Notes under the pieces: generated by a model
Told to the model about the DNA's origin: nothing
Database searches by the model: none
What the model saw: the letters and a program-made list of their open reading frames with translations, nothing else
Origin: Caenorhabditis remanei
Taxonomy: Eukaryota; Nematoda; Chromadorea; Rhabditida; Rhabditidae
NCBI RefSeq assembly: GCF_010183535.1
Contig: NC_071331.1
Location: forward strand, 620,001-684,000
DNA length: 64,000 bases
Direction of reading: 5' to 3'
Shown: positions 1,404 through 61,860 of the stretch, piece by piece
How the letters are laid out: each line of letters opens with the position of its first letter
Position numbering within the stretch: the first letter of the stretch is position 1
Translations under genes and position numbers: made by a program

Positions 1404-1470
1404 GAGCTTTCTTTAAACACAGTAGCAAGGCACTGCAGAAAATGTTATAGTTCTGAAAGTATTGAAACAG
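1404..1470 (-). ncRNA. Candidate 21U-RNA locus
   Basis: Core 1463-1470; TGCT with its T at 1424 (39 nt); RNA 1424-1404. Confidence 0.65.
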
Positions 1471-2452
1471 AAACTTGTTAAATTTACTCTCAGAGTTTTT
1501 AGGGTATTTGAACCTTTACTTGACGATGAGATTGTGTCCCAAAAAGATATAAATTAGTAGGTTTCATGAGGATGAAATATTATTATGAATAATTTGAAAC
1601 TATACAAACAAGCTAAACTATAGAAACACGTTTTTCTATCAAGTATGTATGTAATGTCTGAAATCTGGGAGAACGAGATGTGAGAAGCAATTGTAGATAG
1701 CGCTCGAAATGGGGTTGACTCGCATCCCCGTCCGGCCCGTCCCGGATTGTCATACAACGGTTAAAAATGAATCTAAATTCTTGAAACACTGGAAATCGTG
1801 TCCCCAGCTATGTCTTCAGGCTCTGTGAAAGTTTGACTACTCTCCAACAAAAATGGACTGTTTCTCAGCATGGAAAAAAATGAAACTTCGAGAGCTAATT
1901 ATTAAGAATACTGAAACGATCAAATTGAGAATATGAAAAGCTGAGATTGACAAAACTATAAAATGACGTTCTGTTTTAACGGCGGGTGATCTCCTGAGAA
2001 CAAGGAATCGGTTAGTTAGTATACATATTTCACAATTAATTATGTTCTCTGAAATGCTACCCGGGAGGGAAATGGCGGTTTGTTAGTGAAGTCTGTTCTC
2101 AGGTTCTAAAAAGTTAAACAACTATCATTTTTACAATCTTTCTAGTCGTGGATGCCAAAATTTCAAGTTGTAAACTTCTGGATTAAAAAATAGACTGTAA
2201 TATAGTTGCTGAAAAAGAAAGATGTTTCTAGAACGTTAGAAACAGTCACTGATTTTTCTCATCTTAGTTTGAACGTGGTTTCTGGAAAAAAAATTGGGAA
2301 CGCCAGATCTAGAACCACTAAAACATTATTGATTGAGATGAATCTTCAAAAAGAAAAAAAGTGGTAACAATCAGGAAGAAATACATAAGCCTGAGGAGAA
2401 ATTTACCATCTCACACTATGAAATAATAATTGCTTTTTTTTATCTGATTGTT

Positions 2453-2519
2453 CTGTTTCAGTAAATGATCTTCAAAAAAGGAACAGTTTGTTAAGCAATG
2501 AGAGTCTGATTAAAAAAAA
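2453..2519 (+). ncRNA. Candidate 21U-RNA locus
   Basis: CTGTTTCA at 2453-2460, preceded by a T-rich run; CAAT with its T at 2499 (39 nt); RNA 2499-2519. Confidence 0.7.
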
Positions 2520-3160
2520 ACGGCACAATGCAAATTTTCAGTCACAATACCATAATCTCTCACAATTTTCAAAGTTTCAAACATTTTTGAAAAATAGAAT
2601 ACAGAAGTCACAAATCGGTATAGTGGTAGAATTCTGAAATACACTGTTTTAGGAGCTCGAGACCGTTTGGTAATCATGTAATTCTTCTTGAATCATAGTT
2701 CGACAGTATGAAAAGAATTCAAATCTGTTGCAGTTTAGGATCTGAAGACATTTGTCTTAGTATAATTGGGAAATGTAGAGACAATACACAGTACAATTTT
2801 TGGTCATTATTTCAGGAATGATGACAGAAATGAAAATGGGAAAAGATTGGGGCAAAATACAACAAATGCAGTTTCAATGGTATGTTATGAAAATGTGAAA
2901 TTGGTTCTGACTTGATAGGTACGTGTAACGGGTAGCAATTTATTGGAAGTTTGGAGTACTATTCTTTCTTCAGACCATAAAGATGATGTTTTCGCACGAA
3001 AGGTTGTTAGACAGAGATTAGGAAAAATCGCTTACACCAGGGCAGAAACATAATCTTTATGGACTGTTGAAGGAGTAGTACTCCATACTTCCAATGAATT
3101 TATCAACGAAACGCACAAACAACCAAGGATTCGATGATTGAAAAACGTAAAATCTATCCA

Positions 3161-3228
3161 CTGTTTCAAGGGCTCGAGAAACATATATTCACATAAGATT
3201 TCAGTAATGATTTCAAAGTTCAAGGCGA
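3161..3228 (+). ncRNA. Candidate 21U-RNA locus
   Basis: Core 3161-3168; TAAT, T at 3208 (40 nt); RNA 3208-3228. Confidence 0.65.
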
Positions 3229-3314
3229 AAATTCAGGATCGAAAGAGATATAAAGTTCATGAGAAAGTGTATTGAAACATGTTATGAGGAAGTTATCTTC
3301 CAAGAAAAACAGTA

Positions 3315-3380
3315 AGAGAGACAAAAATAGTTCGAGTAAAATACGAATTCATGAATGCGCAAAACCGTACCATTGAAACA
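3315..3380 (-). ncRNA. Candidate 21U-RNA locus
   Basis: Core 3373-3380; TACT, T at 3335 (38 nt); RNA 3335-3315. It converges on the 3161 locus. Confidence 0.65.
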
Positions 3381-3534
3381 GGATCTTAGGTGAAAAATGA
3401 AAATATGTGAAAAGTGTTTTTTTAAATATAATAGGATCGCAATTAAAAACTACTGATTTAAAGATCACACAAAAGGGGGCATCCCAGATTTTTCCGGTCA
3501 TTTCGTAAATACTCTAATTTTTGTCTACGCGCAG

Positions 3535-3995
3535 GGAACACGGAATTCAAGAATTAAATTTTATTTCACAGCTAGTAATTTTTTAAATAACTTGAAACGA
3601 AATGTATTTGGAATATCGAAGCTTCTAAAAATCATCCAGTTTCAGAGAGAAATTTAGAAATCTGACTGGAATTTAATAGTATTAAATTGGAAGAATTGTG
3701 GGCTAATACCAACGTCGCCGAGAATTCGTATTTCTGATAAAATATAAGATTACCCATTCGCAGGTGGCTGACTAGTCGCTCAAAGTTTGACCCAGGAATC
3801 GCACAATACATTCTCCAAAAACAGAAAACCTATGGTATTTTAGTTTGTCATGGCATTTTTTGATACATTTTTTGAGGCTCGAGAATTAAAACTTATTTCA
3901 CAACTAGTAGATTTTCTCGAAACGGAATGTATTTGGAATATCGAAGCTTCTAAAAATCATCCTGTTTCAGAGAGAAATTTAGAAGGTCAGTGGGG
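3535..3995 (+). repeat. Tandem duplication of about 125 bp, two copies
   Basis: 3535-3660 and 3870-3995 share ATGTATTTGGAATATCGAAG and CTTCTAAAAATCATCC. Copy 2 has the piRNA core CTGTTTCA (3962); copy 1 has CAGTTTCA at the same place. Confidence 0.75.
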
Positions 3996-4028
3996 ATTTT
4001 GTTGTATTAGATCGGGGAAATGTATAAC
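3962..4028 (+). ncRNA. Candidate 21U-RNA locus in a duplicated segment
   Basis: Core 3962-3969; TATT, T at 4008 (39 nt); RNA 4008-4028. The upstream duplicate has lost the core. Confidence 0.65.
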
Positions 4029-5398
4029 TTCGTGGACTAATTCCAAGAATTCATAATTCTGATAAAATCTGAGAAAGGCTACTCGTATATTCTAGGTAAA
4101 TCTCAGAATTCTCACAATAATCATCGGGGTTCCCTAAAAAGTAGAGACCTCCCTTTCATCCCTTACTTGTCACTCTCTCCTCCAGTCTTACATCATCCTA
4201 TTCACTACTATAACAAGTGAGGCGTCAAAAAACCCGGGTGGATCTCTAAAAACGTGTGTGAGTGAGGGAGCGCGTGGAAAATAAAGGATAAATAGGAAGA
4301 GATGAGAGGGAGTAACTCAATTTTGCTCTTTTTAGAATAGGCGACGAAGAGGAGGAGGGGGGAGCCGGTTTAATGAAGTGTGCCAAAAGCTGGGCATACT
4401 CCAATTTCCGGATGCAAACTTTGTCACATTTGGGGAAGTGTGGAAAAAGTTCAGAAAAAGAAGAATCTGGGGGCACCAGTGATAGAATGTTGCGAATTAA
4501 ATAAAAAAGAGATTTTGCTATTCAACAAAATGTTTTTTCCAAAAACGAAATCTTCGGACGGAGCACTGTCGAAATTAATTTTTTCTTTAAAAAACACTTA
4601 TAAGAAACAGGAATAATTGTAAATTGCGACTAGAATTCAGTCAGCAATAGCAGATTTGTCAAAAATCGTGCCGCCCTGATTGAAAAGTGGGTACTGTAAT
4701 TTGAAAAAAAGTTTCAAAATGCTTTAAAATTTCAGAGTAAAAGTAATTAAATTACCTTGCTATGTTACTACACTTTTAGTTAAAACTAGACTTTTTCCAA
4801 AGAAACTGAAACTGAAACTTTTCAAAAGAAATATTTTGGACCGTAACAGCTCTAAAAAATAGAAAAAAAATCCATTGAGAGGTGAAGATCTGCAAAAGAA
4901 CAGTTAATAGAAATGATAAAATCTTATGACATATAGTTGAAACACAGAAATTAAAAGCTAAATTGAAATAGAAATTACTAATTTGAAACAGTCTGGAGCA
5001 GCAAAAATCAGAAACATAAGTTTAAATTCTCAAGTTAACCTTATGGCGCCATACGCTAAGATGCTTCCAGCAAAATGGTTTTTCACAAACAATAAAAACA
5101 TTCAGATTGGAACCGTAAGAAAATATTTCTTCAAGATAATGTGAGAGCTCCACGAAATCTTCCAATGAAATTGAATAAAATCCAACAATTTTGAATTCAA
5201 ACTGAGATTATATGGGAATTTTCTAGCAGGAATTATAAAATGGTAGTGAGCGAACATGATCTACACATCTTAGAAACTTAAAATCACATTATGAAGCAGA
5301 AGAAAATGTTGTGGAATCTGGGTTTTAAAAAATTGCAGCATTATTGAAAAAGTCATTTTTGTTTGAAATTAACCGTGAGCTAGAAACAGAAGAAATAG

Positions 5399-5465
5399 TA
5401 AAAGGTAATTGATTTGTTATCGGTGTAGATTTAGAAACCAGAGAAATATCTTCTAGCTGAAACAG
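5399..5465 (-). ncRNA. Candidate 21U-RNA locus, divergent pair with 5494
   Basis: Core 5458-5465; CGAT, T at 5419 (39 nt); RNA 5419-5399. Its core is 28 bp from the oppositely directed core at 5494. Confidence 0.65.
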
Positions 5466-5493
5466 AACATCTAAATATACACATAGCATTCAA

Positions 5494-5563
5494 CTGTTTC
5501 ACGATAGTCAGATAGATAGTATCATTTTTTAAATTAGATCATTTTTTCCCACTTGGAAGCCAT
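5494..5563 (+). ncRNA. Candidate 21U-RNA locus, long spacing
   Basis: Core 5494-5501; the nearest YRNT is CATT with T at 5543 (42 nt), at the long end of the range. Confidence 0.5.
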
Positions 5564-6647
5564 TCATCTTATCAGATATCTAATCTGAAATCAGTTACTC
5601 TAGGTTTTTCGAGAATGATAAGGAACAAAATCACCATCACCATTTTTAACAGCGACGCATAAAATTACATCTTCAAACAGAAAAAAACTCAAAAATCTGA
5701 AATCCTGACAAAAAAGTGAGCTCTCTCATCTCCACTTTTCTAGAAAAACGAGTACATCATGACTCAAAAAGCTCGCCGAGCCGAGAGAGGGAATCAAATC
5801 GAGTTAGGTCTTCTTCTTCGTCTCATCTTTCATACGAAATTTGTCTCTTCTCACTTTTTTTTCAAACCTAAAACCGCTGAGAAAGATTCGTCATGACCTC
5901 CTAAAATTGGACTCAAAAAAGGGGGGAAAGAAATGTGGTGGAACCGAAAAGAGAGGGGGGGGGGAAGTATCAGTTTCTGCATGAATCTTATACATAAATG
6001 ATCGGATTACGTGACAAGAAAAACGGATTGGATGGGGATTTGGTAACTTTTTTCTGAAACGCTTTTGGGGAAGTAAATGGGAATAGTATCTGAAAATCAT
6101 TGCAACACATTTTTCGTTAATACTTATTGGTGCTTTGAAACATAGATTTTTATTATTGAGATATTCTTTATTGTTGAGATTTTGATGCCTGTTACTACTG
6201 GATGAACAGTTTGAAAAATATTAATGTCTGAATTTCAGTTTTGATATTCCAGGCAGAGATTCTGGCCAGTAAGTTCCACGTGATACATTTTTTAAATTGA
6301 ACGTTTGCAAATGTATTACTAAAAAAATGTTAGTGGATCCATTAATATGAGATTTAGGAGCGTCGTTAAATTATTTTTCTGATACAGGTTCATTTTTTAT
6401 TTTGTTGATAAGAAACTTTGAAATTAGATTGAAATAATCCTTGAAATCTAAAACGCGAGTCATGGCCATCCGAAATGTAAAAAAAACTCGGAAAAATTTG
6501 AGCGATGAGCGAGCTAACAAGTAAGACTGAAGAAGTTTTCTTTGGAGTATTTTTAACATTACCAGTCCTACAGAAACACATTCAAATTTCTAATAACGTC
6601 AAAACGGAACATTTTTGACTTTCCGACTGTCAAGTATATTGTCGCGA

Positions 6648-6760
6648 CAAAAAAGTTCCGACATATTTTACCGACGCCTGTCTGCGGACTTAGTGCTAAA
6701 TTATAAAATTTTGCACTGAGTCCGCAAACACGCGTCGGTAAAAAATGTCGGAACTTTTTT
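6648..6760. repeat. Short hairpin element
   Basis: Arms of about 50 bp: AAAAAAGTTCCGACAT...TGCGGACTTAGTGC pairs with GCACTGAGTCCGCA...ATGTCGGAACTTTTTT. No target duplication seen. Confidence 0.75.
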
Positions 6761-7107
6761 ATTTCTATAATCGGATTGTGACATTTCTCAATTGTTGAAT
6801 TTATTTGTGTCAACAAATTTAAACAATCAAGAAACGTGAAAGAGTTGTGTAGATTCCAAGATCACCTAATGGCACAGAATATATGTTTTTCTGAATATCA
6901 ATTCGATGCAACAGGACAAAAATGCAGTTATTTCCTTTAATTTCTGACAGTATCACACCCACACATTCGAATAATGTTCCTCAACTGGCAAAACCAAAAC
7001 AGTTATTTAGAATACGACTGTTTTAAAACTCTGTGATTATCTAAATAAAACCCAGTGGTACAGTAATATTTGGTTAAATGACTGCTCGAGACGGTAAACA
7101 ACTATTT

Positions 7108-7173
7108 CTGTTTCAGAACATTAATTTAACCAGAAAACTGAAAAATGACCACTTGTTGTTTCTTAGGCCCATT
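7108..7173 (+). ncRNA. Candidate 21U-RNA locus
   Basis: Core 7108-7115; CACT, T at 7153 (38 nt); RNA 7153-7173. The core and next 13 nt resemble the 34945 locus. Confidence 0.65.
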
Positions 7174-8007
7174 TTTTAATGTCTCCAATTGGACTGTGCG
7201 TGGAATATACAGTTACTTTAAAACATAATTCGAAAAACCTACATGTTTCACATCTCTTCATAAGAATGAGTCCGCAAAAAGTGAACCAAGAGAAACCGAA
7301 AAAAAAACATTCAGGAAATGAGAAAAAAAGTATGGAGGTAAAGCGTTGAGGTAAATCTTGTGAGTAATTCATGAGAAGTGTTTCGTGCTTCCAATTTTTT
7401 GAGGTTTGGTTGCAATAGACGTATTAGAAAAAAATCCGTTTCGTAAACTCAAGATAGCTTGGTGGAACAGGAAAATTTCAGTGTAATCTGGGTAATTTAA
7501 ATAAAACTTGATCAGACGTTACCTAAAAATAGTTCGTTTACGCTAAACGCTACTTTTAAAAATAAAATTCAAACTTTGACGGGTTCCTTCCAAAACAAAA
7601 AACTTTCGCCCATTTCCCTAAACATGCATGCATTTTTGACACCTTCTCAAAGTTCTTTTTTCTCCCTTCACATAAACACATAAAGAGAAGTAGAGAGACG
7701 GGAAATATGGGTTACACGGCTCACGGCAGAAGAATTATGTGACAATGGGCGGGGTCTTTTTTGGGAAAAAACTGAAGCTGAAGAAGTAAAGAGAATGAAT
7801 GTGCTCTCTATTTATGGAAATGGGGAAACAGACAAGTGAAAAAGATGTTAGCTGAAAGTGAATAATTGGAGTCCGGATTTTAAGACAGTAAGAGATTAAG
7901 GACAAAATTGAGGATTTTGAGTTTGACTAGTCTTTTTTTTCATGATTAGAAATCTGTATGGAGCCTGGAGGAAAATGGGAGGAAAACTTTCAAAAACTTA
8001 GAGAATT

Positions 8008-8590
8008 ATGAGCATTTGTGCGTGAAATCTCGATTTTTGAAATGTGTCTCTAGTGTTGACATTGACCTCGAATTCAATTTTTGGTCTGATAGTTTAGAGG
8101 CAGCTTGTGGCATCTAGCGGATTCAACGAATATTGGTTTTTGTTCTACTTTCCAATTAACATGGGTGAACGAAACAGTATAGAGATTATTTTGAGAACAC
8201 CGTTTCACAATGTAATCAAATTTTATCAAGAACAGTCGACAGCGTTTTTATGAGGTAATTATCTGGTAATTAGGAATCCAATTTGGGATTCTGAAACGAT
8301 AGGACTTCTCCATCGTATGAAAAAGTTTATGGAAAATTAAGAGCGTTTGTGCGTGAAATCTCGATTTTTGAAATGTGCCTCTAGTGTTGACATTGACCTC
8401 AAATTCAATTTTTGGTCTGACATTTTGATCAGGCATATTGAATTCAAATAAGGTGGCAGCTAACAAAAACAAGTTCTAGTTAAAAAGTAACATGGGTTGG
8501 CGGAACAGTGAAATTGTTTTAAGAATACCGTTTTACAGTGTAATCAAATTTTATCAAGAACGGTTGACAGTGTTTTTATTGAACGAGACT
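8008..8590 (+). repeat. Tandem duplication of about 250 bp
   Basis: 8008-8255 and 8341-8590 share GTGCGTGAAATCTCGATTTT, TCTAGTGTTGACATTGACCT and GTAATCAAATTTTATCAAGA. The open frame at 8492-8695 falls in it and is not conserved in the first copy, so it is not called as a gene. Confidence 0.75.
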
Positions 8591-9517
8591 GATGTTATTC
8601 ACTTTAGACTGAAAACACACGGGTCTTCGGAAATGCTTTCGATCTGGTGTGCTCCATTGATAAATACGACCGTTAGGATTACGGTAGGCTTTTAGCACAG
8701 TGTCAAAGCAAATTCTCAGGCTCTAACGGGCTAAATTTATGTAACATTTTTCTCTACATTGAGATACCAGTCAAAAAATCCGCTTAACAGAGATATCTAT
8801 GGAACACGCGACGCAACCGCAGCGCCATCTCAAAAACCTGGGAAAAACAAATTCGCCACGTGAAAGCATAATGCAAACTCATAAAAATAATGGAGAATAT
8901 GAAATTGTCCCGAAAAATTAACAGCATTGTACAACAAATAGTGAAATGTCAAATGGCTAGAATTTAATTCAGATGTGAAACCGATAAAAAAGGAAAATAA
9001 AAATAAAAACAGGTGAAAACCTGGCACCGGGAAACTGAGAGCTAACAAGTTGGAAGAACGAGAAAAAAAATAGAAAAATAAACGAATTCATTCAACTATC
9101 AAAGTGTTTTTCTTCTTTTATTTCTCTTTTTATGCTCTTGAAAAAAGGAAGGAACAATTAATAAACAAAAAATAGCTCCCGTTTCTGATCGTTGATTTAT
9201 GAGTTGCTCCTTGTTATATTCAGTTCAATCATAATAGCAATTTTGATTTTTTGTACTTTGAATCAAGATCAGAACATGACAAACCATAAAAGAAAGTGAA
9301 ACATGAAAATCCCGAAGAAAAATTTCTAATTCCAATTATAATCCCTCTATTAATCCTTTTCACCTTTTCTTCATTTAAGAATGATGCAGAAAAGGGGCGG
9401 AGTCTAATTGGGAATAATTCAAGAGGCTTACAGAAAAGGGATGGATATGTATGTATGTATTGGGGGTGTGCAAGAGGATAAGGTTACCCAAAAAACCAGA
9501 AATAAATATATAAAGAC

Positions 9518-9600
9518 CAGTCGGTTAACGCAGCCTAACGGCTGCTCAACCTCCTTCTCTACACCACCCTTCTGGGTGTTACAGCGCCTGCGGCGCTTCT
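9518..9600 (+). repeat. Dispersed repeat, head module
   Basis: ACCAGTCGGTTAACGCAGCC then CTAACGGCTGCTCAACCTC, shared almost exactly with 26381-26440; the two copies then diverge after ACACCACCC. Confidence 0.7.
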
Positions 9601-10454
9601 TAAATGGTTCAAACTATCGAAGTCTCAGAATTTTCTCCTTCTCCTGGATCGTATTAATTTTCTTCACTTGTCGGTAGTTTTTGTTAGCTAAACAGCCCGT
9701 TCCGGTAGAGAACAATTAAAATTTCTCTGCTTTTCTGATACGATTTCGACAAATTTACTCGGTGACTTTTCTATCCTGAGGAAAAAAGGATTTCAATATG
9801 AGCAGTTTTCAATTCACTAATCGAAACTGTATTCATTTTTTCTAATTTATCTAACATACTATTTCAAAAGAACAGGAACTTTTAACTCTCCTTTCTCCCT
9901 TCTCGAGAGTTGAGTCATCTTTCAAATATTAATGTCAAACTTCGGCGACAATGCTGCCTCCCTTCTCTGAATACGGCAGACTGAGACCATGTTTTAACAA
10001 ATCCTCATCCTAGAAATTATTACCTTTTGAAGGTAACTGATCAACGACAAAGTTACTTATTCACAAATCACTTTTTTTGAATTCAGACTGAGAAAGCCTT
10101 ACCAACTCTTTTACTGAAGCTTAGAAATTTGAAAATGTTCCTATTCACATCTTTAAAAAATTAACCTAAAGTACTACTTTTAAGTTTTTGACTGATCGGC
10201 AGCGATGCCGATTCCCTCCCCAAAATCTTTCAAGATTGTTTCTCATATACACGGAAATCTTCTCATCAGTTTGGTTTGATCTGAACTGTTCTGCTTTCTG
10301 ATTTTTTTTCTCTAAAATACTTCAAAGCTATTCTACATATTTCTAAGTGTGAAAGTTAGACAGCCGGTAAAGGAGTACAGTAATGGCCATAAATCGAACA
10401 ACTTTGACCGTTTTTCAGTTAAAAATGTCCAACTTTGAAAGGGTGTCAATAAAG

Positions 10455-11040: not shown

Positions 11041-11069
11041 AAAATTGTTTTAAACCCACGCATTTTTCC

Positions 11070-36928: not shown

Positions 36929-36929
36929 T

Positions 36930-51235: not shown

Positions 51236-51302
51236 TCTCGTTGCAGAAAAGAGTCAGTGTTCCCATCTGTGATCCTCTCAATATAAGATCTTTTTGAAAC
51301 AG
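51236..51302 (-). ncRNA. Candidate 21U-RNA locus
   Basis: Core 51295-51302; CACT, T at 51256 (39 nt); RNA 51256-51236. Confidence 0.65.
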
Positions 51303-53294: not shown

Positions 53295-53361
53295 CTGTTT
53301 CAACAAAGACTTGTTTCTTTAATTTGTGGCGTAGAGATAATCTGTATTGAGGTTGGACATT
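53295..53361 (+). ncRNA. Candidate 21U-RNA locus
   Basis: Core 53295-53302 after TTTT; TAAT, T at 53341 (39 nt); RNA 53341-53361. Confidence 0.7.
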
Positions 53362-53927
53362 TTTTGAAACAATGCGATCTGTATTTGCATTTTGAATATC
53401 TTTTGAGTATCTGTTTCCTGAATCACAAGAATATAATTTTTTGAAAATCAAGCCAATTGGGTTTTCTCTGAAATCGGATCAAAAATAATTAGTTCGGTTT
53501 CAATATGTTGTCTTTTCTTCTTTCATTCTAAATGATTGATTGGACTCCCATGAGATAAGGCCAGACGTTAGGTAGAATAGACTATATGAAAGATTTATGA
53601 GCTAATCTCTTTTCTGAATTAGCGTACAATTTTTTTTAAATTTAAATTTATTTATTTCATCGAAAGGTGAATACCACATACACGTGAAAATTAATTGTTT
53701 TAGGAGTTACATGAAGGAGATGGTTAATAAATAGGAAAAGAAATAGATAACCGGGAATGGGAGCAAACGGAGAGTAGAACAGAAAGATAAAGAGGGGTAA
53801 AATAGTTAGAGTTATGAGCCTATTGACAAGGTTGCAAATAACTATTTTGTGAATATATATAAAAATATTTTTCTGCATTTTCTCCTACCCAATTGGAACC
53901 ATAAAAACAAATTTGGTAATTCAATTC

Positions 53928-54223
53928 CATATTTGCAACGGGCCGGGCCGATTTGAGACCCTGGTCACAGTACAAAAATTTGAAAATTTGAATTTTTTTG
54001 AAAATTTTTTGATTTTTTTTTTTTTTTTTAAAGTCGAATTTTCGACTATGTTTTTACATATCGATAAAACTCAAGTTTACATAGGATTTTTGACTATTTT
54101 TGATAAAAATTTCAAAAATTTCGAAAAATTTTGTGAAAAAATTGTGCTCATTTTTTGACTCCGGGCCGGGCCGGCAACTTTCTCTACCGGCCCGGGCCGA
54201 CGGGCCGATATTTTGCAAGTATG
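53928..54223. mobile_element. GGCC-rich hAT-like MITE, copy B
   Basis: Ends CATATTTGCAA / TTTGCAAGTATG with perfect 8-bp flanks TTCAATTC (53920-53927, 54224-54231). It shares the phrase CGACTATGTTTTTACATATC with copy A, read in reverse. Confidence 0.92.
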
Positions 54224-54395
54224 TTCAATTCTGATCCGTCGCTTTGTATGCCATTAAAACATTTTTGGTAGACATCAGAAATATTTTTTATCCCAGCACT
54301 GAACAAAAAGTGACTTCACTCAAAATAAAATGCTTTAGAGACCAAAAAGTCAGTTTCAAAATAAATTAATCATTTTCAAAATAATCATTGGAGCT

Positions 54396-54463
54396 ACTGA
54401 AGTTTACATTAACACATCATATTTTTTTATAAAACAAAAGTTCAAGATTTTGTCATGAAACAG
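54396..54463 (-). ncRNA. Candidate 21U-RNA locus
   Basis: Core 54456-54463; TGAT, T at 54416 (40 nt); RNA 54416-54396. Confidence 0.65.
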
Positions 54464-55168
54464 CCATACATTTTTTGGGAGAATCCTGAATTTTTTTTAG
54501 TTTGGCTTTGGGCAAGGTAAACTGTTTCTCAATAGAGCACACTTTTTAGACTTGAGAATGGTTCATACAAACAACTTGAACATAGAAGTGATAATGCTTC
54601 AAAAAATTTATGATATCAACAACTACTGCTTCAAATATTTATTTTTTTCACCATTCTTTGAAACATCCATTACTAGAGCCATAACTGTTGTTTTCTCAAT
54701 TACAAGAAAAAATATATCACATAACTTGAGGCGTGCTAAGTCACTGTACTAGTAAATTTAAGAATCCTGAAAAATTACAACGCGTCAAAGGCACGCCAGA
54801 CAGATCTTTACACTTTACGTAGGCTCCTGTCTATTACTTAAAATTTCAGTTTCAGAAATGTTTGAATAATCTTTACAATTTGATTTGTTAATGCTTGAAT
54901 GGAAAACCATGCTTTTATGGAATCAGTAATCAACTTTTACAAAATAATTCCCGGAGCATCAAATAAATTATTTTCGCATGTGCTCCTCCTCCATCCTTCT
55001 GAAAATCTCACGTTTTCGACGAGGCGTGATCATTCGAATACGGTAGCCAATTTCTCTAATCCTCTCTCTTCCACATGCTCTCTCGGATAATCGATCAGGA
55101 AATGGGTGATGTGAGAATTTTCTTGGTTTTCTGCGATTTTTTCGACTCAGAATCATCACAGATTCAAT

Positions 55169-55227
55169 CGGAAGTGAGAGATTAGACATCGGAAATGCAT
55201 TAGGCTTATCAATGAGCCATATAAAAA
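55169..55227 (+). promoter_or_regulatory. Candidate flp-17 core promoter: ETS-like site and TATA box
   Basis: CGGAAGT at 55169-55175 fits an ETS-factor core, and TATAAAAA at 55220-55227 fits a TATA box about 93 nt before the start codon. ETS-5 is a known regulator of BAG neuron identity and flp-17 in C. elegans. That it uses this site is inference; a 7-mer match alone is weak. Confidence 0.4.
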
Positions 55228-55310
55228 GGGGCCTCGTGGGCAAGGTTTTTCATTCAGAATCCTATTTGTCCTTTTCTTTTTTTTTCTCCTCTTGTTTTTC
55301 AATATTAACC

Positions 55311-55320
55311 TTTTTTCCAG
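55311..55320 (+). promoter_or_regulatory. Splice acceptor abutting the flp-17 start codon
   Basis: TTTTTTCCAG ends at the base before ATG 55321, as at many worm SL1 trans-splice sites. It favours this ATG as the true start. Confidence 0.6.
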
Positions 55321-57009
55321 ATGCTCCCCAAACTCGTGTTCATCACTTTTCTGCTGTTCACCAGCTCCTTTGGAGCATCAATGGAGGAGATTCAGTCAGA
55401 GAAGTTCTGTGAGAAGTTCCCAACACTTCACATGTGTCGGTTGAAGGAGGAGTTGACTGGAAGCCTCGTCGAGTTGCAGTACCTTCTTCAAGATGGTGAG
55501 TTGGGAGGGAATTTGGGTTTTTAAGATAAATCGACAAACAGTTATTGATTTAGATCCGTTTCAAAGTTTTTTCATGGAGATGATGAAACCGAGTTTTGTG
55601 AGGAAATCTTAGGATCGATATTGCTAGAGATCAGAATTTAACATTTCACAGCTCTTTTTTTATTACTTTAAAGCAAATGATTAACTGATCGGTGTCCATA
55701 TAATTTTCTATTTATTTCTGCTGTTTCTGAAACGTTTGAATTTTGTACTGAACATCATTGTTTGATTTGTTCTCATTTTTCTATCCTGAAAATATTAAAC
55801 GTAATATAGAAAAAAACTGAGACAACGGAGAACTCAAATATATATTCAGTTTTCCCCTCTGAGACCCGATATTCGAGAAAAAACTAGGCCGGTAAGTCAC
55901 CTCACTACATACCTGTATGATAATGACTTGACAGCAGTCAAAACTTTGACCTCGTTTCTCTTGAATACCATTTTTCAAAGCTAAAAACTGAAAAACTTAA
56001 ATTGAGTTTTAAGAATTTGTTGATGGCATTGATTCAAATAGTATTCAAAGTTTTTTCATGGAGGTGATGAAACAGAGTTTTATTAGGAAACCTCACAGAC
56101 GATATTGTAAGATTTGAAATAGAATCAGAATTAAGCATTTCAAAGCATTTTTGAAAAGCTCCAGTGCAAAAGGATGACCGAAACGGTGTCAATATCATTT
56201 TCTATGTATTTCTTCTGTTTCTGAAACGTTAGAATTTTGTTGTGAAAATCGTGATTTCATTTCGTCTCATTTGAAAATGTTTATGGTGACTCTTATCATT
56301 GAAAAGCTGAGAGAACGCTAATTCCAAAAGTGTGTTTAGTTTTTCACCTCGACACAAAAAAGGTACCTATTTTTTAACCAAGTTTGGAAATTCTCGTCAT
56401 GGCCCGGCCCGTTGCAAGTATGTCTTTCTCAAGTTTTACCGTTTCATTGCTTTCATCAAGCCGATAAATTTTTACGAAACAAGTTTTTCTTAACTACCGA
56501 ATTTCATTCTCTCAGAATTTATTGAAATCCATTCACCTTATCAATTTGCCTTTCCAGGAATCAATGTCGGAGGCCAACAACAACAAGTCGGAGCTCAAGA
56601 GGTTCAGAAGAGGAAGAGTGCCTTCGTCAGATTCGGAAAACGATCGGCGCCAGAAGAGGAGGGAATGGTGAGGAGTCTGGGGATATGGGGCATGCTGATT
56701 GGAGATGGGAAACAACGAAATGATTTTAAAGTCAATCAGTTTCAGGACGGTCTGAAATAGTATGACTTTTTTTTAAACATTAATAAACGAAAAAACCTTT
56801 TCCAATTCTTTGAATTTAAAACGAATTCCGAGAACCAGTAGTGTCATTTTTGTGTTCTGCAAAATATGAATAACCAGAAACTGAAAAATTACAAATTTCA
56901 GGAAATGGAAAAACGCAAGTCCGCCTTCGTCCGTTTCGGAAGATCCTTTGGAATGGAGCCACAGCTGACTGAGAAGAGAAAGAGCCAATACATCAGATTC
57001 GGAAAATAA
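55321..57009 (+). CDS. flp-17: FMRFamide-like neuropeptide precursor FLP-17
   Basis: Exons 55321-55495, 56558-56667 and 56902-57009 (stop TAA), 130 aa. Residues 1-19 are a signal peptide (hydrophobic core VFITFLLFTSSFG). The spacer has Cys30 and Cys39 and a QQQQ run. Three peptides are flanked by dibasic KR sites: KSAFVRFG at 78-85 followed by KR, KSAFVRFG at 101-108 followed by RS, and KSQYIRFG at 122-129 followed by a terminal K. The final Gly of each is the amide donor. Two KSAFVRFamide and one KSQYIRFamide are the diagnostic set for flp-17; in C. elegans it is made by the BAG sensory neurons and acts through the receptor EGL-6 to inhibit egg laying. The start ATG directly follows TTTTTTCCAG, so a leader exon or trans-splicing supplies the 5' end. 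Intron 1 is enlarged by an internal tandem duplication and holds an antisense 21U-RNA locus. Confidence 0.96.
55545..56300 (+). repeat. Tandem duplication inside flp-17 intron 1
   Basis: 55555-55800 and 56040-56300 share CAAAGTTTTTTCATGGAG, GATGATGAAAC / GGTGATGAAAC, TATTTCT and CTGTTTCTGAAACGTT. It explains the 1.06-kb size of this intron. The - strand core is perfect in copy 2 (56068) and TGAAACCG in copy 1. Confidence 0.75.
56008..56075 (-). ncRNA. Candidate 21U-RNA locus, antisense in flp-17 intron 1
   Basis: Core 56068-56075; CAAT, T at 56028 (40 nt); RNA 56028-56008. Confidence 0.65.
56396..56422. mobile_element. Solo end of the GGCC-rich MITE in flp-17 intron 1
   Basis: GGCCCGGCCCGTTGCAAGTATG is one complete family terminus with no partner nearby. 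Confidence 0.6.
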
Positions 57010-57367
57010 TAATTTGATCGACTTTTCACTGCTTCTTCTTTCTTTTCTTTTTTTCTTTTTTCCCCCTAACAACATCAATGAGCAACTCTAAATACTACTC
57101 TCTTGGGTACCCCTCTCCTTCTCAAAATTTTTGATTTTCCATTCTGAGACCACCCCCTTGTTAATTCTCCTCTTCTCTCTTCTGGTGTTCAGTCTGAAAT
57201 CAAAATATTCTAGATTTTCTGAAAATATTCCTTTTCGTGGGCGCTTCTTCTTCTTCTTCTTTTGATGTGGAAAATCTCCGTTTTGTCGTCCGAATGTGTT
57301 TGTCAATTGGTGTGTGGGCAAGATGATACCACTCCTCCGAACAGTCTGAAATTTATTGAGATTTTAT

Positions 57368-57373
57368 AATAAA
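57368..57373 (+). terminator. Poly(A) signal of flp-17
   Basis: AATAAA 359 nt after the stop codon; the 3' UTR in between is T- and C-rich. Confidence 0.4.
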
Positions 57374-58255
57374 ACAAATCTTGTGTTAATCAGTAAAAAA
57401 CATGATGGAAAAAATGCAGATATTTTTGTTTGTTTCGATCTCCGCGGAAAATTATAAGGAAATTCAATACGATTATCGTTTTAAAAAGCTAGCATAGATT
57501 ACAATTTTCAGTTTTGTCAATGAGTTAATGAAAGCAACAATAACTACATAGAATCTCATAAAACTAATAGTCATACCATTTTCAAATTTAGGCTACGTGA
57601 TTGAAAGTTTGTGGAGAATATATATTCAAATATATTTTTTTGTAGAAAGACTGTCAAAAACTGATTTTCAATTAAAAAAACTGCTTTTGCGTCTAAGACA
57701 TTAATTTGCGTTTACCACAATTAAAAATCTGGATCTTCTGAAACTGGAATTCGTTTCAAAATCTGTCGAAAAAATGTGCTATAAAGCAAAATTTAACCGA
57801 TTTTCTGTCGACAGGGTGTCACAAAGGAACCTAGTCTGAAAATCAATCTAAATGAGAAATGACTTGTTATTTTCTTGAATTTTTCAAAATTTTACATGTT
57901 TCGGAACATTTGTATTTATGAGTAAAATATGATAAAGTTTGCTTGATTCATATTGTTTCTAGTATTGAGGCTATGTTGTGAAGAAAATCGTTCAAAGGAT
58001 ACCGAACATTTTGTTATTAAGGAAGATTCACAGTGCCCAGGTCAACTATTCAATTTGTTTCATGATGGTTTTGTAACAGAACATTGTTGCAAACCAATTA
58101 TCATTTTTTAATCGAATTGTTTTAATATTAGAGTTCACTGATTTATATAAACATGGTTTTTTGGAATTTAAAAACCTCACTTGAGCATTATTGGGATAGT
58201 GACTGATTCAGACGTCAATAGAAAAATCCAATATTCATTTATATGTATTAAAAAT
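57374..58255. other. Intergenic DNA downstream of flp-17
   Basis: AT-rich; I see no gene, repeat or exact piRNA core here. Confidence 0.5.
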
Positions 58256-58321
58256 CTGTTTCACGTTGTTCAAAAAACTATCTTTACCTTATTCCGACAA
58301 TATATGAAGCATGTGTGTGTT
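58256..58321 (+). ncRNA. Candidate 21U-RNA locus
   Basis: Core 58256-58263; CAAT, T at 58301 (38 nt); RNA 58301-58321. Confidence 0.65.
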
Positions 58322-58547
58322 TTTAAAGCATAGTCTTGTTGTTACATACGTTCTTTATGGTCTTTTGGAACCGTGGTGTACTTACGGAACCAAAAATGAA
58401 TAGTAAGGATCCAAATTGATCATATCGCATTTGATATTCACACAAGTTTAAATGGAGAGGACTAAAAGTGAATATTTACTAAAACTAGTTATTTCCGATC
58501 TGAAACTACAATATTTTCCTCAAGTAAAGATTGTGACAGTTTTTCTA

Positions 58548-58614
58548 CTGTTTCACGTGTTTATCTTATGGTATACATCTTTTATTGCAATGTTAGTTCC
58601 GATTTTGTAATTTT
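58548..58614 (+). ncRNA. Candidate 21U-RNA locus
   Basis: Core 58548-58555; TGTT, T at 58594 (39 nt); RNA 58594-58614. Confidence 0.65.
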
Positions 58615-59042
58615 TTGTAAATTTTGATATTCAACTCGAACAAAAAATAATAATTTTTTAAGCTTTCTTCACGTGAACTATGTATTTTAACGAGAATAAA
58701 ATGTTTTTGCTTGAAAGTCTATCAACTTTCTCATAAAGTTTTGAAGATTCAAAAAAAAACATTTATAGAATTGGTGAAAATTATTATTCAGCATGAATTA
58801 TTGATGCTACAGATGTCTTTCCCGTTTCAAGACAAACCTAACATGTCTGATTTAAAAAATTTTCTCATGTGATCTACGTATATGAAACCAAAATAATTTT
58901 TTATATTTTCGGTTTCACTTTTTTCTTAATTTATCTCTCAATGAGCTTGAGGCAATCAAAGGGTATCATATCTTCTCAAAGAAGGGTCCACAGAAGAAAT
59001 GATATATGAGTCGTGATCAGTTTCCGTTCCATGACCAACATA

Positions 59043-59783
59043 TCAAAGAATGTTTAATAGAAAAAAAAACAAATGTAGATCTGATAAATCATCTTCATCC
59101 ATCATTCCTATTGTTGGGCATTTATTGGAATTGGACTTCAGAAATTCTCCAAGCTTTCTTCTAGATGATCCATTTCCAGAATTCCATACATCAGGACAAG
59201 AGCAGTTGGCCAAGCATTCATTCCATTCAATTTTCAGGTTTTCTATTGAATTCTGGACGTCCGAGGGTTTAGGATCCAAGTTCATCAAGTATCGCCGAAT
59301 CTTCCTTTTTAAAAAGCCAATAGCCTTTGAAATTTGATTTTTCCTCCTTTGACATTTGATTTTCTTCTCTACTTCAGCACTAAGTATTTTGAATACGAGA
59401 TTCATAGTGGCCAGTCTAAGAGCACTGCCATGTCTCGGAATATCCACCAACGCCTTCGCATTAAATCCACAATGCTCATCTCCAGTTCTCAGGCTGCAGT
59501 AAGAAACACGAGATTTCAAGTGTTCACACCCTCGTTTCCATTTATGGTCATCTGAATTTCCAGATTTCCTGTGTACCCATTGCTCGATAAGTCTCTTGTC
59601 GCGATCCGCACATTGCCATCGGATAGGAAACGTTTTTAGATTATTCGACAAGCGAAACATGGGGTCTGATGATGTCTCAGTGGTCTTCAGTGCTGATTGT
59701 TTCTGGCTTAGCTCACAGAAGACACAAACTTCTAGTTGTTCGGTATATGAAGCACAGTTCAGACAGAACGTTAGCATAGACAT
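59043..59783 (-). CDS. Hypothetical cysteine- and lysine-rich protein, about 246 aa
   Basis: A single long open frame of normal coding appearance in otherwise non-coding DNA. The start is placed at 59783 because TTCCAG immediately precedes that ATG on the - strand (59789-59784), and a GTGAGT donor about 43 nt further upstream (near 59832) would give a non-coding leader exon. An in-frame ATG at 59804 would add 7 residues inside that putative intron. The N-terminus has CLNCASY then CVFCEL, a possible zinc ribbon. The middle is basic (KKIKCQRRKNQ) and the tail has DEDDLSDLHLFFFLLNIL. I do not recognise a family. No piRNA core falls inside it. Confidence 0.5.
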   Translation of the reverse strand: MSMLTFCLNCASYTEQLEVCVFCELSQKQSALKTTETSSDPMFRLSNNLKTFPIRWQCADRDKRLIEQWVHRKSGNSDDHKWKRGCEHLKSRVSYCSLRTGDEHCGFNAKALVDIPRHGSALRLATMNLVFKILSAEVEKKIKCQRRKNQISKAIGFLKRKIRRYLMNLDPKPSDVQNSIENLKIEWNECLANCSCPDVWNSGNGSSRRKLGEFLKSNSNKCPTIGMMDEDDLSDLHLFFFLLNIL

Positions 59784-60126
59784 CTGGAATTTGAAAACTT
59801 TCATAAAACTTTGAAGCAGTATAAACTCACTTCAGCTTCTCACCAATTCTGAGGCAGTTCAAGACAATTTTCCTTGTGATGGCAAATGTTTATATGTAAC
59901 CAGTTTAAAACAGTGACGACCGAAGAAAAAATATACAAAACGCAATAGGACTGAAAATTATCTGAAAAGATTGTACCTGTTTTGAGTCAATATCACATAC
60001 TGCACTAGAAAAACTGAATTGTTGTCAAAGTTTTTAAATCTATTTGTTTGATGCGTCTCAAGCAGAATCAATTTTTTCAAAATCAGAGCATCAGTAATAA
60101 TTGAATGTTCTCGTTGATATTTATCT

Positions 60127-60193
60127 CCTCTTTAAAAAATAAATATACCAAATTTCCGTTCAACAATTTCAACTTACGGAAAACGTGAAACAG
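60127..60193 (-). ncRNA. Candidate 21U-RNA locus, divergent pair with 60237
   Basis: Core 60186-60193; TGGT, T at 60147 (39 nt); RNA 60147-60127. Confidence 0.7.
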
Positions 60194-60236
60194 TATTCAA
60201 ATAACTAGATTCTCCGTTTTCTAGTCTTAAATATAT

Positions 60237-60303
60237 CTGTTTCACCAACCGGAATTCTATATTTCTCACTCCATGAAATTAGTGACTGATTGCGAGCAGA
60301 TTT
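60237..60303 (+). ncRNA. Candidate 21U-RNA locus, divergent pair with 60186
   Basis: Core 60237-60244; TAGT, T at 60283 (39 nt); RNA 60283-60303. The two cores are 43 bp apart. Confidence 0.7.
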
Positions 60304-60530
60304 TCATCCCCGTTTACCTCAATCTCACAGTTCTCCATATATCCCGATCGGCCAAAATTTTACGGCAAGGCGGAGAGATGAAGAGTATGAAAACTAGGCA
60401 AACTGAATCAGGAGCAGAGATTCTATAGTTTACTTCATACATATACCTTTTGTTTCTCCGACATTTCCCTGACAAACCTCAGAAAAAGTTTCTAGACTAT
60501 GTTATGCTCCAAAAATGTCGCCATGAAATT

Positions 60531-60596
60531 CTGTTTCAAATATCAGATGTTGTTGATGTGCTTTTCCGCATATATTCAGTAATTTCCTTGACGTTC
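60531..60596 (+). ncRNA. Candidate 21U-RNA locus
   Basis: Core 60531-60538; TATT, T at 60576 (38 nt); RNA 60576-60596. Confidence 0.65.
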
Positions 60597-60674
60597 CTCA
60601 AAACACGAAGGTTTTTTAGATGCGTCTTCAAATCATATTAACTGTTTTTAAGGTTAACATGCTGCGAAGTTAGA

Positions 60675-61320
60675 TTGGTAATTCACTGTTACCAAGATGT
60701 TTTCTCTGTCCAGAAAACTATTTTTGATATTCACCTTCTTCATTTTCTCCGTGTTCCCTCTTCGGTGAAGAACAAACTTCCGATAACATCTCCGATTCTC
60801 GTGAATTTCAAAAAATATGTCAGTGCGTCTCTACTTCGTTATCTTCCATCATCCATTCAAACCAACAGAGGAAAATATTTGTGGAAATTGATGTTGACTA
60901 GATATTTTGATACAAGAATGGGCTTTGGAACTTACAGTTCAATTTAGAAACCTGGAAATAGCAAACGTAATTTTCTACTGATGTGAAGTATGGAAACTGA
61001 AACTGGAGAAAATCCCACAAACTAGAAAAAAGCTATGAGAGAAGAAATTCTTTCTGTTTCAGACAAATATTAACAATAATAGTTATAACTTGGTTAATGA
61101 TAAGTATTGTCCAACCGTCAATTTTCATTTCAATGTGTCGCCATTCTTCCAATTGACTGATGACTTTCCACTGAATACAATCTCCGATTTCAATCAGCAA
61201 GAGTACTTCTCATCAATTAGAAAAATGAGACACGAGGAATTGAAAAAAGTGAATGCAACGTTTAATTCGATAAGTGTAAATGAATATACAGGGTGTCTTT
61301 CTAAAAAATATCAATTTTAA
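60675..61320 (+). pseudogene. Possible degenerate gene fragment
   Basis: 60675-60947 and 61063-61320 are open in two frames and protein-like in composition, with 61063 directly after TTTCTGTTTCAG. The second part has NDKYCPTVNFHFNVSPFF and SSIRKMRHEELKKVNA. Joining needs a frame change, and no start or donor is convincing; 60968 GTAATT is the best donor. The apparent acceptor is also a perfect 21U-RNA core (61054-61061), so the splice reading may be false. No family recognised. Confidence 0.25.
61054..61121 (+). ncRNA. Candidate 21U-RNA locus
   Basis: Core 61054-61061; TGAT, T at 61101 (40 nt); RNA 61101-61121. The core doubles as the supposed splice acceptor of the 61.1-kb open frame. Confidence 0.6.
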
Positions 61321-61560
61321 AAAATTGAAATCTTTCAATTTCATTTACTAGTTATTTTCAAATACCTACATTAAGTGGCATTTGGTGAATCGGTTTGAGC
61401 TAAATAAAACGAAACAAAATAAATTACTTTAAAATGTTGGAGAATAAAAAAGACTGACAGCTTCGTTTAGGTATTTAATTATGAAAAAACCACAACAAAA
61501 AAAACTAACAATAAAATGTATCACATTTTACAGCAAACATTTTTGTATACTGTTATCTTT

Positions 61561-61629
61561 CTGTTTCAATATAAAATGAACTCCTTGTGAGAATAAGTAA
61601 CAAATTAATTGAGTAAGTTTATTTTAAAA
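61561..61629 (+). ncRNA. Candidate 21U-RNA locus, spacing slightly long
   Basis: Core 61561-61568; TAAT, T at 61609 (41 nt). Confidence 0.55.
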
Positions 61630-61712
61630 ATCGTCGGTTTTCATTTCCAAACCGGCGACCAACACCGTTTTTACAGAGAAAAATAACAAATGTGAGAAAA
61701 TTATTGAAAATT

Positions 61713-61779
61713 CATAACTTTAGGTCATGATAAGTGAACTATCAATTTATAGATAAGTTTTGTGTGCCACCTGAAACAG
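61713..61779 (-). ncRNA. Candidate 21U-RNA locus, divergent pair with 61795
   Basis: Core 61772-61779; CACT, T at 61733 (39 nt); RNA 61733-61713. Confidence 0.7.
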
Positions 61780-61794
61780 ACTTACTGTGAATCA

Positions 61795-61860
61795 CTGTTT
61801 CAACTCTTTCAAAATTAACCTTTGCGTTTTGTAGGGTGCTTGTTCGCAAAAAAACCGAAT
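61795..61860 (+). ncRNA. Candidate 21U-RNA locus, divergent pair with 61772
   Basis: Core 61795-61802; TGCT, T at 61840 (38 nt); RNA 61840-61860. The two cores are separated by 15 bp. Confidence 0.7.

What the first reader, a model, noticed from the sequence alone, without database searches (positions are those of the whole stretch)
1404..61860. The window is a dense 21U-RNA (type I piRNA) cluster
Seen directly: about 48 exact CTGTTTCA cores (27 +, 21 -) in 64 kb, against about 2.5 expected at roughly 35% GC. As an independent test, 41 of the 48 have a YRNT with its T 38-40 nt past the core, whereas chance gives about 22% for three positions. Known: this core plus YRNT, about 40 nt apart, defines the autonomous 21U-RNA genes of Caenorhabditis, transcribed with SNPC-4/PRDE-1-type factors and loaded on PRG-1. 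Inference: the non-coding DNA here is mainly a field of piRNA mini-genes. The 21-nt sequences themselves evolve fast, so most would be undescribed.
Basis: partly seen in the sequence, partly recalled or inferred. Interest (0 to 1): 0.93.

Follow-up and report, generated by a model that had tools for sequence, protein, structure and literature searches.

The report
Worm piRNA mini-gene cluster, chromosome IV
This stretch of a roundworm's chromosome IV is packed with roughly one to two hundred predicted tiny genes for germline-guarding small RNAs, the same kind already known from its close relatives, so it is real but expected.

Summary
The window holds 48 exact CTGTTTCA cores (27 +, 21 -), and in 41 of 48 a YRNT places its T 38-40 nt past the core, against 20% by chance. 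The window is Caenorhabditis remanei PX506, chromosome IV 620,001-684,000. The best reading is a slice of that species' type I 21U-RNA (piRNA) territory. The core is about 5-fold denser here than genome-wide. Longer patterns put 77 of 95 and 87 of 102 places on IV, mainly near 0.5-13, 18-20.4 and 23.1-24.2 Mb. Relaxed cores: 122 of 185 have the YRNT here against 41 at shifted spacings; in one 10-kb stretch from each other chromosome, 5 of 28 against 5.2. "Mainly a field of mini-genes" overstates, since units fill roughly 10-25% of the DNA. The genome encodes a PIWI-clade Argonaute exon. Expression was not testable. 21U-RNAs of C. remanei and conserved Caenorhabditis clusters on IV are in print, so novelty is low. 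My searches found no chromosome-scale map for this species.

The parts
1404..1470 (-). predicted 21U unit (core to 21U end; core CTGTTTCA, predicted T at 1424)
2453..2519 (+). predicted 21U unit, T 2499
3161..3228 (+). predicted 21U unit, T 3208
3315..3381 (-). predicted 21U unit, T 3335
3962..4028 (+). predicted 21U unit, T 4008 (tandem copy of the unit at 3637, core CAGTTTCA)
5399..5465 (-). predicted 21U unit, T 5419
7108..7173 (+). predicted 21U unit, T 7153
12200..12267 (-). predicted 21U unit, T 12220
12653..12718 (-). predicted 21U unit, T 12673 (tandem copy of 13217); model score 9.7, so not among the 166
13152..13217 (-). predicted 21U unit by core and YRNT, T 13172; not in the model's list even at 8.75
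14105..14170 (-). predicted 21U unit, T 14125
18725..18790 (-). predicted 21U unit, T 18745
21221..21288 (+). predicted 21U unit, T 21268
25439..25504 (+). predicted 21U unit, T 25484
25953..26019 (-). predicted 21U unit, T 25973
26914..26979 (+). predicted 21U unit, T 26959
29178..29243 (+). predicted 21U unit, T 29223
29287..29354 (+). predicted 21U unit, T 29334
33864..33931 (+). predicted 21U unit, T 33911
34945..35011 (+). predicted 21U unit, T 34991
36863..36928 (+). predicted 21U unit, T 36908
38975..39042 (-). predicted 21U unit, T 38995
39923..39988 (-). predicted 21U unit, T 39943, antisense within the CNNM gene span, just past the first CNNM open frame (ends 39920)
41207..41272 (-). 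predicted 21U unit, T 41227; its core faces the + core at 41242 (which lacks the YRNT); its 21-mer seems to reach a few bases into a CNNM exon read by eye
45184..45249 (+). predicted 21U unit, T 45229
46165..46232 (+). predicted 21U unit, T 46212
49724..49790 (+). predicted 21U unit, T 49770
50076..50142 (-). predicted 21U unit, T 50096
50773..50840 (-). predicted 21U unit, T 50793
51236..51302 (-). predicted 21U unit, T 51256
53295..53361 (+). predicted 21U unit, T 53341 (highest model score, 19.8)
54396..54463 (-). predicted 21U unit, T 54416; model score 9.4, so not among the 166
56008..56075 (-). predicted 21U unit, T 56028 (tandem copy of 55591)
58256..58321 (+). predicted 21U unit, T 58301
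58548..58614 (+). predicted 21U unit, T 58594
60127..60193 (-). predicted 21U unit, T 60147
60237..60303 (+). predicted 21U unit, T 60283
60531..60596 (+). predicted 21U unit, T 60576
61054..61121 (+). predicted 21U unit, T 61101
61713..61779 (-). predicted 21U unit, T 61733
61795..61860 (+). predicted 21U unit, T 61840
1..64000. all predicted units, degenerate cores included: 166 at model score 10.75 (94 +, 72 -), 230 at 8.75; listed one by one

Best explanation
The window is a slice of the type I (Ruby-motif) piRNA territory of C. remanei chromosome IV. Each unit is an autonomous mini-gene: a CTGTTTCA-like upstream element, an A/T-rich spacer, a YR initiator 38-40 nt past the core, and a 21-nt body starting with T. 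By analogy with C. elegans, the upstream element is bound by the SNPC-4/PRDE-1/TOFU-4/TOFU-5 complex. RNA polymerase II then starts two bases before the T and makes a capped precursor of about 25-29 nt, which stops near a low-melting stretch. The precursor is trimmed to a 21-nt 5'-U RNA loaded on PRG-1, which scans germline transcripts. Shown here: motif, spacing, density, chromosome distribution, a modest GC step, and a PIWI-clade exon in the genome. Inferred: binding, transcription, processing, loading, targets.
For: 48 cores and 41 of 48 with YRNT at 38-40. A model trained only on twelve other 10-kb stretches of IV finds 166 units in the window and 6 in the reversed window at score 10.75. 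Relaxed cores: 122 of 185 have the YRNT against a mean of 41 (30-49) at 14 shifted spacings; the twelve training stretches give 112 of 188 against 45; five stretches, one each on I, II, III, V, X, give 5 of 28 against 5.2. Genome: 19,000 cores against 6,781 for the reversed word. Longer patterns: 77 of 95 and 87 of 102 places on IV. GC step after the start: 0.386 at +1..+9 (z 3.1), 0.287 at +20..+24 (z -3.2) against random YRNT positions, among eight intervals tried. PIWI-clade exon on chromosome I: Piwi-like protein 1 at 1.7e-34 against argonaute-2 at 1.6e-15. Published: C. remanei makes 21U-RNAs, 2-3 times as many as C. elegans and C. briggsae (review PMC6468775, passages).
Against: No small RNA data could be examined. 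SNPC-4, PRDE-1 and the TOFU proteins were not searched. Sampled stretches vary a lot: the ten around the window have 0 to 9 exact cores per 10 kb. The stretch at IV 20.0 Mb, inside a block, has no exact core, and the three IV stretches at 15, 20 and 25 Mb together show no offset signal (5 of 41 against 4.2). At lower model scores the eight control stretches also give a forward excess (87 against 39 reversed at 8.75), so some degenerate calls are chance or splice acceptors. Constraint on the core is not established: within the window it differs less than its flanks between duplicated copies, but on the larger set where permuted control words were run, the real ratio (0.81) lies inside their scatter (mean 1.07, sd 0.40).
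Confidence: 0.95

Rival explanations
1. The words are mainly 3' splice acceptors and T-rich intron ends that happen to read CTGTTTCAG.
For: 12 of 48 cores are followed by G. The + core at 41242 lies in the CNNM gene span and lacks the YRNT at 38-40.
Against: 36 of 48 are not followed by G, and 31 of these 36 have the YRNT; so do 10 of the 12 followed by G. Acceptors predict no YRNT at a fixed 38-40 nt. The longer words are concentrated on IV, while acceptors lie on all chromosomes. Relaxed cores in the five stretches from other chromosomes show no offset signal.
Confidence: 0.02
2. The word was spread by a repeat or transposon that carries it, so the count reflects copies and not promoters.
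For: 6 of 9 short-range tandem duplications in the window carry predicted units in both copies (3547-4074, 8001-8579, 12516-13317, 33196-33657, 50131-50372, 55544-56272). An array at IV 9.34 Mb repeats one extended core.
Against: Only 25 of 166 predicted units (15%) lie in DNA with another copy in the searched set, against 17% expected by shifting. The predicted 21-mers are nearly all unrelated: one pair among 166 within 6 ungapped mismatches.
Confidence: 0.02
3. The elements are promoters of snRNA-type genes (SNAPc sites), whose motif is related to the piRNA motif.
For: The Ruby motif is reported to derive from the SNAPc motif of snRNA promoters (PMC6436959, abstract and passages).
Against: No Rfam family reaches its cut-off in the window and no tRNA is found. 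More than 100 units in 64 kb fit no snRNA locus.
Confidence: 0.01
4. A field of mostly dead piRNA promoters, relics of expansion, with few units expressed.
For: Many cores are degenerate. Expression was not testable. Core retention in duplicates does not stand out from permuted control words on the larger set. In C. elegans, cluster piRNAs come almost only from H3K27me3 domains (PMC6436959, passages), so part of the territory could be silent.
Against: Within the window the core differs at 7 of 112 sites and the flanks at 221 of 1031 between duplicated copies, and a pausing-type GC step is present.
Confidence: 0.12

Closest known systems
C. elegans type I 21U-RNA clusters on chromosome IV (Ruby motif; SNPC-4, PRDE-1, TOFU-4, TOFU-5; PRG-1)
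   Same: CTGTTTCA core with conserved GTTTC, A/T-rich spacer of about 35-42 nt (PMC3597512, passages), YR initiator before a T, both strands, chromosome IV, megabase scale.
   Different: Here three blocks spanning about 16 Mb of a 25.8-Mb chromosome instead of two regions of about 3 Mb. The 21-mers were not compared. A first core base other than C, reported for many female 21U-RNAs of C. elegans, is a minority here (19 of 166 predicted units), but the model was seeded on CTGTTTCA and favours C.
C. briggsae piRNA clusters (IV 0.02-7.1 and 13-15 Mb, I 9.8-12 Mb; PMC9683057, section read)
   Same: Same motif, same initiator, a cluster reaching nearly to the left end of IV.
   Different: C. remanei shows no comparable block on chromosome I in the thinned maps (3 of 95 and 2 of 102 places on I).
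Pristionchus-type piRNAs
   Same: Ruby-motif relatives with a pausing signature (PMC6436959).
   Different: Dispersed over the autosomes and mainly in introns of active genes (PMC6436959, passages); here clustered on IV.

Membership tests
type I 21U-RNA (piRNA) genes of Caenorhabditis | CTGTTTCA upstream core, GTTTC most conserved | tested here: met
   48 exact cores; learned weights 0.92-0.96 at the GTTTC positions; 136 of 166 units carry GTTTC (the model was seeded on exact cores)
type I 21U-RNA (piRNA) genes of Caenorhabditis | YRNT at a fixed distance of about 40 nt | tested here: met
   41 of 48 against 20% by chance; 122 of 185 against 41 at shifted spacings
type I 21U-RNA (piRNA) genes of Caenorhabditis | A/T-rich spacer | tested here: met
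   5-nt GC bins from -40 to -1 run 0.23-0.36, 0.229 at -30..-26 with z -6.6; window mean 0.35 (from the counts); modest
type I 21U-RNA (piRNA) genes of Caenorhabditis | clustering on chromosome IV and near absence elsewhere | tested here: met
   77 of 95 and 87 of 102 thinned places on IV, which is 20% of the genome; relaxed cores in five stretches off IV: 5 of 28 with YRNT, as in the control
type I 21U-RNA (piRNA) genes of Caenorhabditis | units on both strands without prominent strand bias | tested here: met
   94 + and 72 - in the window, runs test p 0.21; on the whole of IV thinned places do run together on one strand (p 0.0005), which I put down to local duplication
type I 21U-RNA (piRNA) genes of Caenorhabditis | pausing signature (higher then lower melting after the start) | tested here: met
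   GC step z +3.1 and -3.2 against random YRNT positions, eight intervals tried; GC only, no melting profile computed; modest
type I 21U-RNA (piRNA) genes of Caenorhabditis | PIWI-clade Argonaute (PRG-1) in the genome | tested here: met
   chromosome I 628,061-628,363, a 101-aa exon whose closest solved chains are Piwi proteins; orthology to PRG-1 not shown by a tree
type I 21U-RNA (piRNA) genes of Caenorhabditis | SNPC-4, PRDE-1, TOFU-4, TOFU-5 present | not tested
   no query sequence at hand
type I 21U-RNA (piRNA) genes of Caenorhabditis | 21-nt 5'-U RNAs, PRG-1 dependent | not testable with these tools
   no small RNA reads held; C. remanei 21U-RNAs reported in print (PMC6468775, passages)
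type I 21U-RNA (piRNA) genes of Caenorhabditis | H3K27me3 chromatin | not testable with these tools
   no ChIP data
Pristionchus-type dispersed piRNAs | even spread over the autosomes | tested here: not met

The most novel reading that the evidence does not exclude
In C. remanei the type I piRNA territory has grown to about 16 Mb in three blocks of chromosome IV (about 0.5-13, 18-20.4, 23.1-24.2 Mb), holding of the order of 30,000 units. This growth helps explain both the reported 2-3-fold excess of 21U-RNAs over C. elegans and the unusually low recombination published for the left arm of IV (1.45 cM/Mb, the lowest of the autosomal arms).
Probability: 0.25. Interest if true: 0.5.

Novelty: already known. 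Interest (0 to 1): 0.3.

Why it matters
It places about 100-200 predicted piRNA genes at base resolution in a chromosome-level C. remanei assembly, from sequence alone. The three-block map makes one question testable: whether the excess of 21U-RNAs reported in outcrossing species comes from a larger territory on IV rather than a denser one. The kind itself is well described.

Tried and rejected
Regional strand bias: long same-strand runs in the thinned maps (12 in a row and) looked like orientation domains, and the pooled runs test over 293 places on IV gives p 0.0005. Against it: between different patterns strand agreement is near half beyond 2 kb (24 of 53, 28 of 66, 126 of 274, 363 of 756) and high only within 2 kb (17 of 23). 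Within one pattern it is high within 2 kb (14 of 21) and at 10-30 kb (60 of 84) but not at 2-10 kb (41 of 78). The window runs tests give p 0.49 for exact cores and 0.21 for model units. I put the excess down to local duplication; that is inference, since I could not read the flanks of those places.

Accelerated divergence of the 21-mer: in paralogous pairs the 21-mer differed more than the flanks (20 pairs, 72 of 85 pairs kept after identity, coverage and end filters: 0.309 against 0.231 for pooled flanks). With global alignment the DNA downstream is about as divergent (0.297), and all six decoy spacings show the same direction, so the claim is dropped. Many pairs come from the single array L043, so they are not independent. 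The 'core conserved' figures share cores with their decoys; one search is the fairer test.

Constraint on the core: one search gives core against flank differences of 7 of 112 against 221 of 1031 in the window (14 pairs, YRNT required), 17 of 144 against 291 of 1320 without the YRNT rule, 60 of 412 against 740 of 3816 with the twelve other stretches (0.75 as a ratio; 0.81 without the YRNT rule). The permuted words were run on that last set without the YRNT rule: mean ratio 1.07, sd 0.40, over 112 of 120 words with five or more pairs, many of them from high-copy repeats. The matched real value, 0.81, is not outside that scatter. I therefore do not count constraint as shown.

Units enriched in duplicated DNA: no, 25 of 166 against 17%. 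Convergent or divergent core pairs within 60 bp: 8 and 10 against 6.4 and 6.3 by chance, not significant. Rfam, tRNA: nothing. Of the 67 Piwi-domain places I compared four exons with solved chains: L034, L040, L041 are closer to argonaute, L042 to Piwi. One search read L034 on the wrong strand and matched nothing; one search failed on stop codons for the same reason; one search was a script error, mended. Literature on a C. remanei piRNA map: PX506 and piRNA: one paper, on a retrotransposon; none.


Full report
IDENTITY. The window is G000 contig C4, 620,001-684,000. The six contigs C1-C6 have 17,247,545, 19,935,723, 17,877,849, 25,790,997, 22,502,457 and 21,501,900 bases. These equal the chromosome sizes of C. 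remanei PX506 I to X in Table 1 of PMC10461856 (section read). So the window lies near the left end of chromosome IV.

OBSERVATION. There are 48 exact CTGTTTCA, 27 + and 21 -, and 41 of 48 have a YRNT with its T at 38, 39 or 40. Random positions give 0.201; the binomial p is 4e-22. Other three-position offsets give 9-15 of 48. CTGTTTCA is the commonest of the 840 words made of its letters (mean 2.7). A third-order Markov model expects 8.0. By that model's score several C/G-rich words (CCGGCCCG and shifts) are even more over-represented; they belong to a dispersed repeat and are listed in passing. Twelve of 48 cores are followed by G, as a splice acceptor would be; 10 of these 12 and 31 of the other 36 have the YRNT.

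MORE UNITS THAN COUNTED. Several one-mismatch cores carry the same offset signal. With GTTTC fixed and at least two of the three other core letters, 122 of 185 cores have the YRNT at 38-40, against a mean of 41.0 (30-49) at 14 shifted spacings. That implies about 104 real units (my arithmetic: 81 excess divided by 1 - 41/185). A weight model with spacing was seeded on 29 sites and refined on twelve 10-kb stretches of chromosome IV outside the window. It finds 166 units in the window and 6 in the reversed window at score 10.75, and 230 against 15 at 8.75. Eight other 10-kb stretches (five on I, II, III, V, X; three on IV at 15, 20, 25 Mb, of which the 20-Mb one lies inside a block) give 45 forward and 8 reversed per 80 kb at 10.75. 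The forward excess there shows that reversal is a lenient control. I therefore give 100-200 units. At about 67 nt from core to 21U end, these cover roughly 10-25% of the window.

ANATOMY. The learned model shows A/T letters before the core, C at position 1 (0.83), a loose second letter, GTTTC at 0.92-0.96, A at position 8 (0.78), spacing 38-40 dominant, Y and R before the T. Of eight GC intervals compared with random YRNT positions, three matter: 0.229 at -30..-26 (z -6.6; almost wholly outside the scored columns), 0.386 at +1..+9 (z +3.1; +1 to +3 are scored columns of little weight) and 0.287 at +20..+24 (z -3.2). The last two fit the published pausing signature (PMC6436959, first of two parts of the section read) but are modest; I computed GC, not melting temperature.

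GENOME DISTRIBUTION. The core occurs 19,000 times genome-wide and its reversed word 6,781 times, that is 0.146 per kb against 0.75 per kb in the window. Ten 10-kb stretches around the window (0.50-0.81 Mb) hold 30 cores, from 0 to 9 each; those at IV 5.0 and 10.0 Mb hold 9 and 3; five on other chromosomes hold 6, one with YRNT; those at IV 15, 20, 25 Mb hold 1, 0, 0. ATTTCTGTTTCAAA: 77 of 95 places on IV (3 on I, 2 on II, 1 on III, 4 on V, 8 on X; complete list). TTTGCTGTTTCAA: 87 of 102 on IV (first 100 listed; 2 on I, 6 on II, 2 on III, 3 listed on V), although its reversed control is high at 38. Two more lists were cut at 100 places and show the same trend (90 of the first 100 of 165; 87 of the first 100 of 286). 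Places on IV fall at about 0.5-13.0, 18.0-20.4 and 23.1-24.2 Mb with few between (the third block rests). The window is thus a slice of the left block. How dense the territory is elsewhere is uncertain. The genome excess of about 12,200 cores over some 16 Mb would give near 0.7 per kb, like the window. The twelve stretches sampled inside the left block hold 42 per 120 kb, 0.35 per kb. So the window is between average and about twice average.

SELECTION. In duplicated copies within the window, cores of units with a YRNT differ at 7 of 112 sites and their flanks at 221 of 1031 (14 pairs, p 3e-5, sites not independent). With the twelve other stretches added it is 60 of 412 against 740 of 3816 (p 0.017); with the array L043 also added 67 of 682 against 1296 of 6207. 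The permuted control words, run on the set without L043 and without the YRNT rule, give a mean ratio of 1.07 with sd 0.40; the matched real ratio is 0.81 (96 of 626 against 1091 of 5788) and is not set apart. Constraint on the core is suggested in the window but not established. A faster-evolving 21-mer is not supported (see Tried and rejected).

MACHINERY AND GENES. The Piwi family model hits 67 places in the genome. Of four exons compared with solved chains, one on chromosome I, 628,061-628,363, matches Piwi-like protein 1 at 1.7e-34 and argonaute-2 only at 1.6e-15; the other three are argonaute-like. I read this as a PRG-1 candidate; no tree was made. The window encodes a CNNM metal-transporter gene on + (CNNM 39498-39917, CBS 41285-41860, CNBH 43171-43698). 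Eight predicted units (score 10.75) lie in its span, six on the opposite strand. Checked against three exon frames, only the doubtful 41242 core touches one. That check left out a further likely exon ending near 41,210, read by eye, into which the 21-mer at 41227 (-) seems to reach by a few bases. No Rfam family or tRNA is present. I recall that a C. elegans CNNM gene lies near the right end of IV, which would fit the right-hand cluster there; no call tested this.

COMPARISON WITH PRINT. C. elegans: two clusters on IV, core CTGTTTCA, A/T-rich spacer of about 35-42 nt, autonomous units, GTTTC at 4.0 per kb inside against 0.2-0.4 outside (PMC3597512, passages). Here GTTTC is 6.0 per kb in the window and 3.5 per kb in the eight control stretches, so that shorter word discriminates less in this genome. 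C. briggsae: 25,883 piRNA loci, clusters on IV and I (PMC9683057, passages and one section). Two large blocks map to C. [quoted passage not shown] the name remanei does not occur in its main text). C. remanei expresses 21U-RNAs, 2-3 times as many as C. elegans and C. briggsae (review PMC6468775, passages; the primary paper was not seen). My rough figure, 12,200 excess exact cores times 104/39, is about 32,500 and agrees with that, but it extrapolates one window.

VERDICT. Expression and processing are inference.

Noticed in passing
window 312-580, 1746-1789, 20381-20529 and others: A dispersed C/G-rich repeat around CCGGCCCG (25 occurrences over both strands, 0.5 expected) is the most over-represented word of the window by the third-order model.
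   Followed up: no
window 15087-16495 and 17401-18335: Two elements with long, 98% complementary inverted arms (347 and 199 nt), like non-autonomous DNA transposons. The frame 17437-17934 (-) looks mariner-like by eye, but Pfam gives no hit.
   Followed up: partly
window 39498-43698 (+): CNNM metal-transporter gene with transmembrane, CBS and CNBH domains; eight predicted piRNA units lie in its span, six on the opposite strand.
   Followed up: partly
G000 C4 18,940,176-18,957,398: Three pairs of motif places exactly 12,345 bases apart: a tandem segmental duplication or an assembly duplicate inside the 18-20.4 Mb block.
   Followed up: no
G000 C4 9,337,243-9,346,545 (L043 holds 9,336,501-9,346,500): Local array in which one extended core, ATTACTGTTTCAA, occurs 9 times in 9.3 kb on both strands, 8 of them inside L043; many diverged copies of one unit family.
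   Followed up: partly
chromosome IV, left arm (0-8.64 Mb): The published recombination rate of this arm, 1.447 cM/Mb, is the lowest of the autosomal arms (the right arm of X is lower, 1.339), and it coincides with the left piRNA block.
   Followed up: no
window 3547-4074, 8001-8579, 12516-13317, 33196-33657, 50131-50372, 55544-56272: Short-range tandem duplications with offsets of about 150-500 bp; these 6 of the 9 found have predicted units in both copies.
   Followed up: yes
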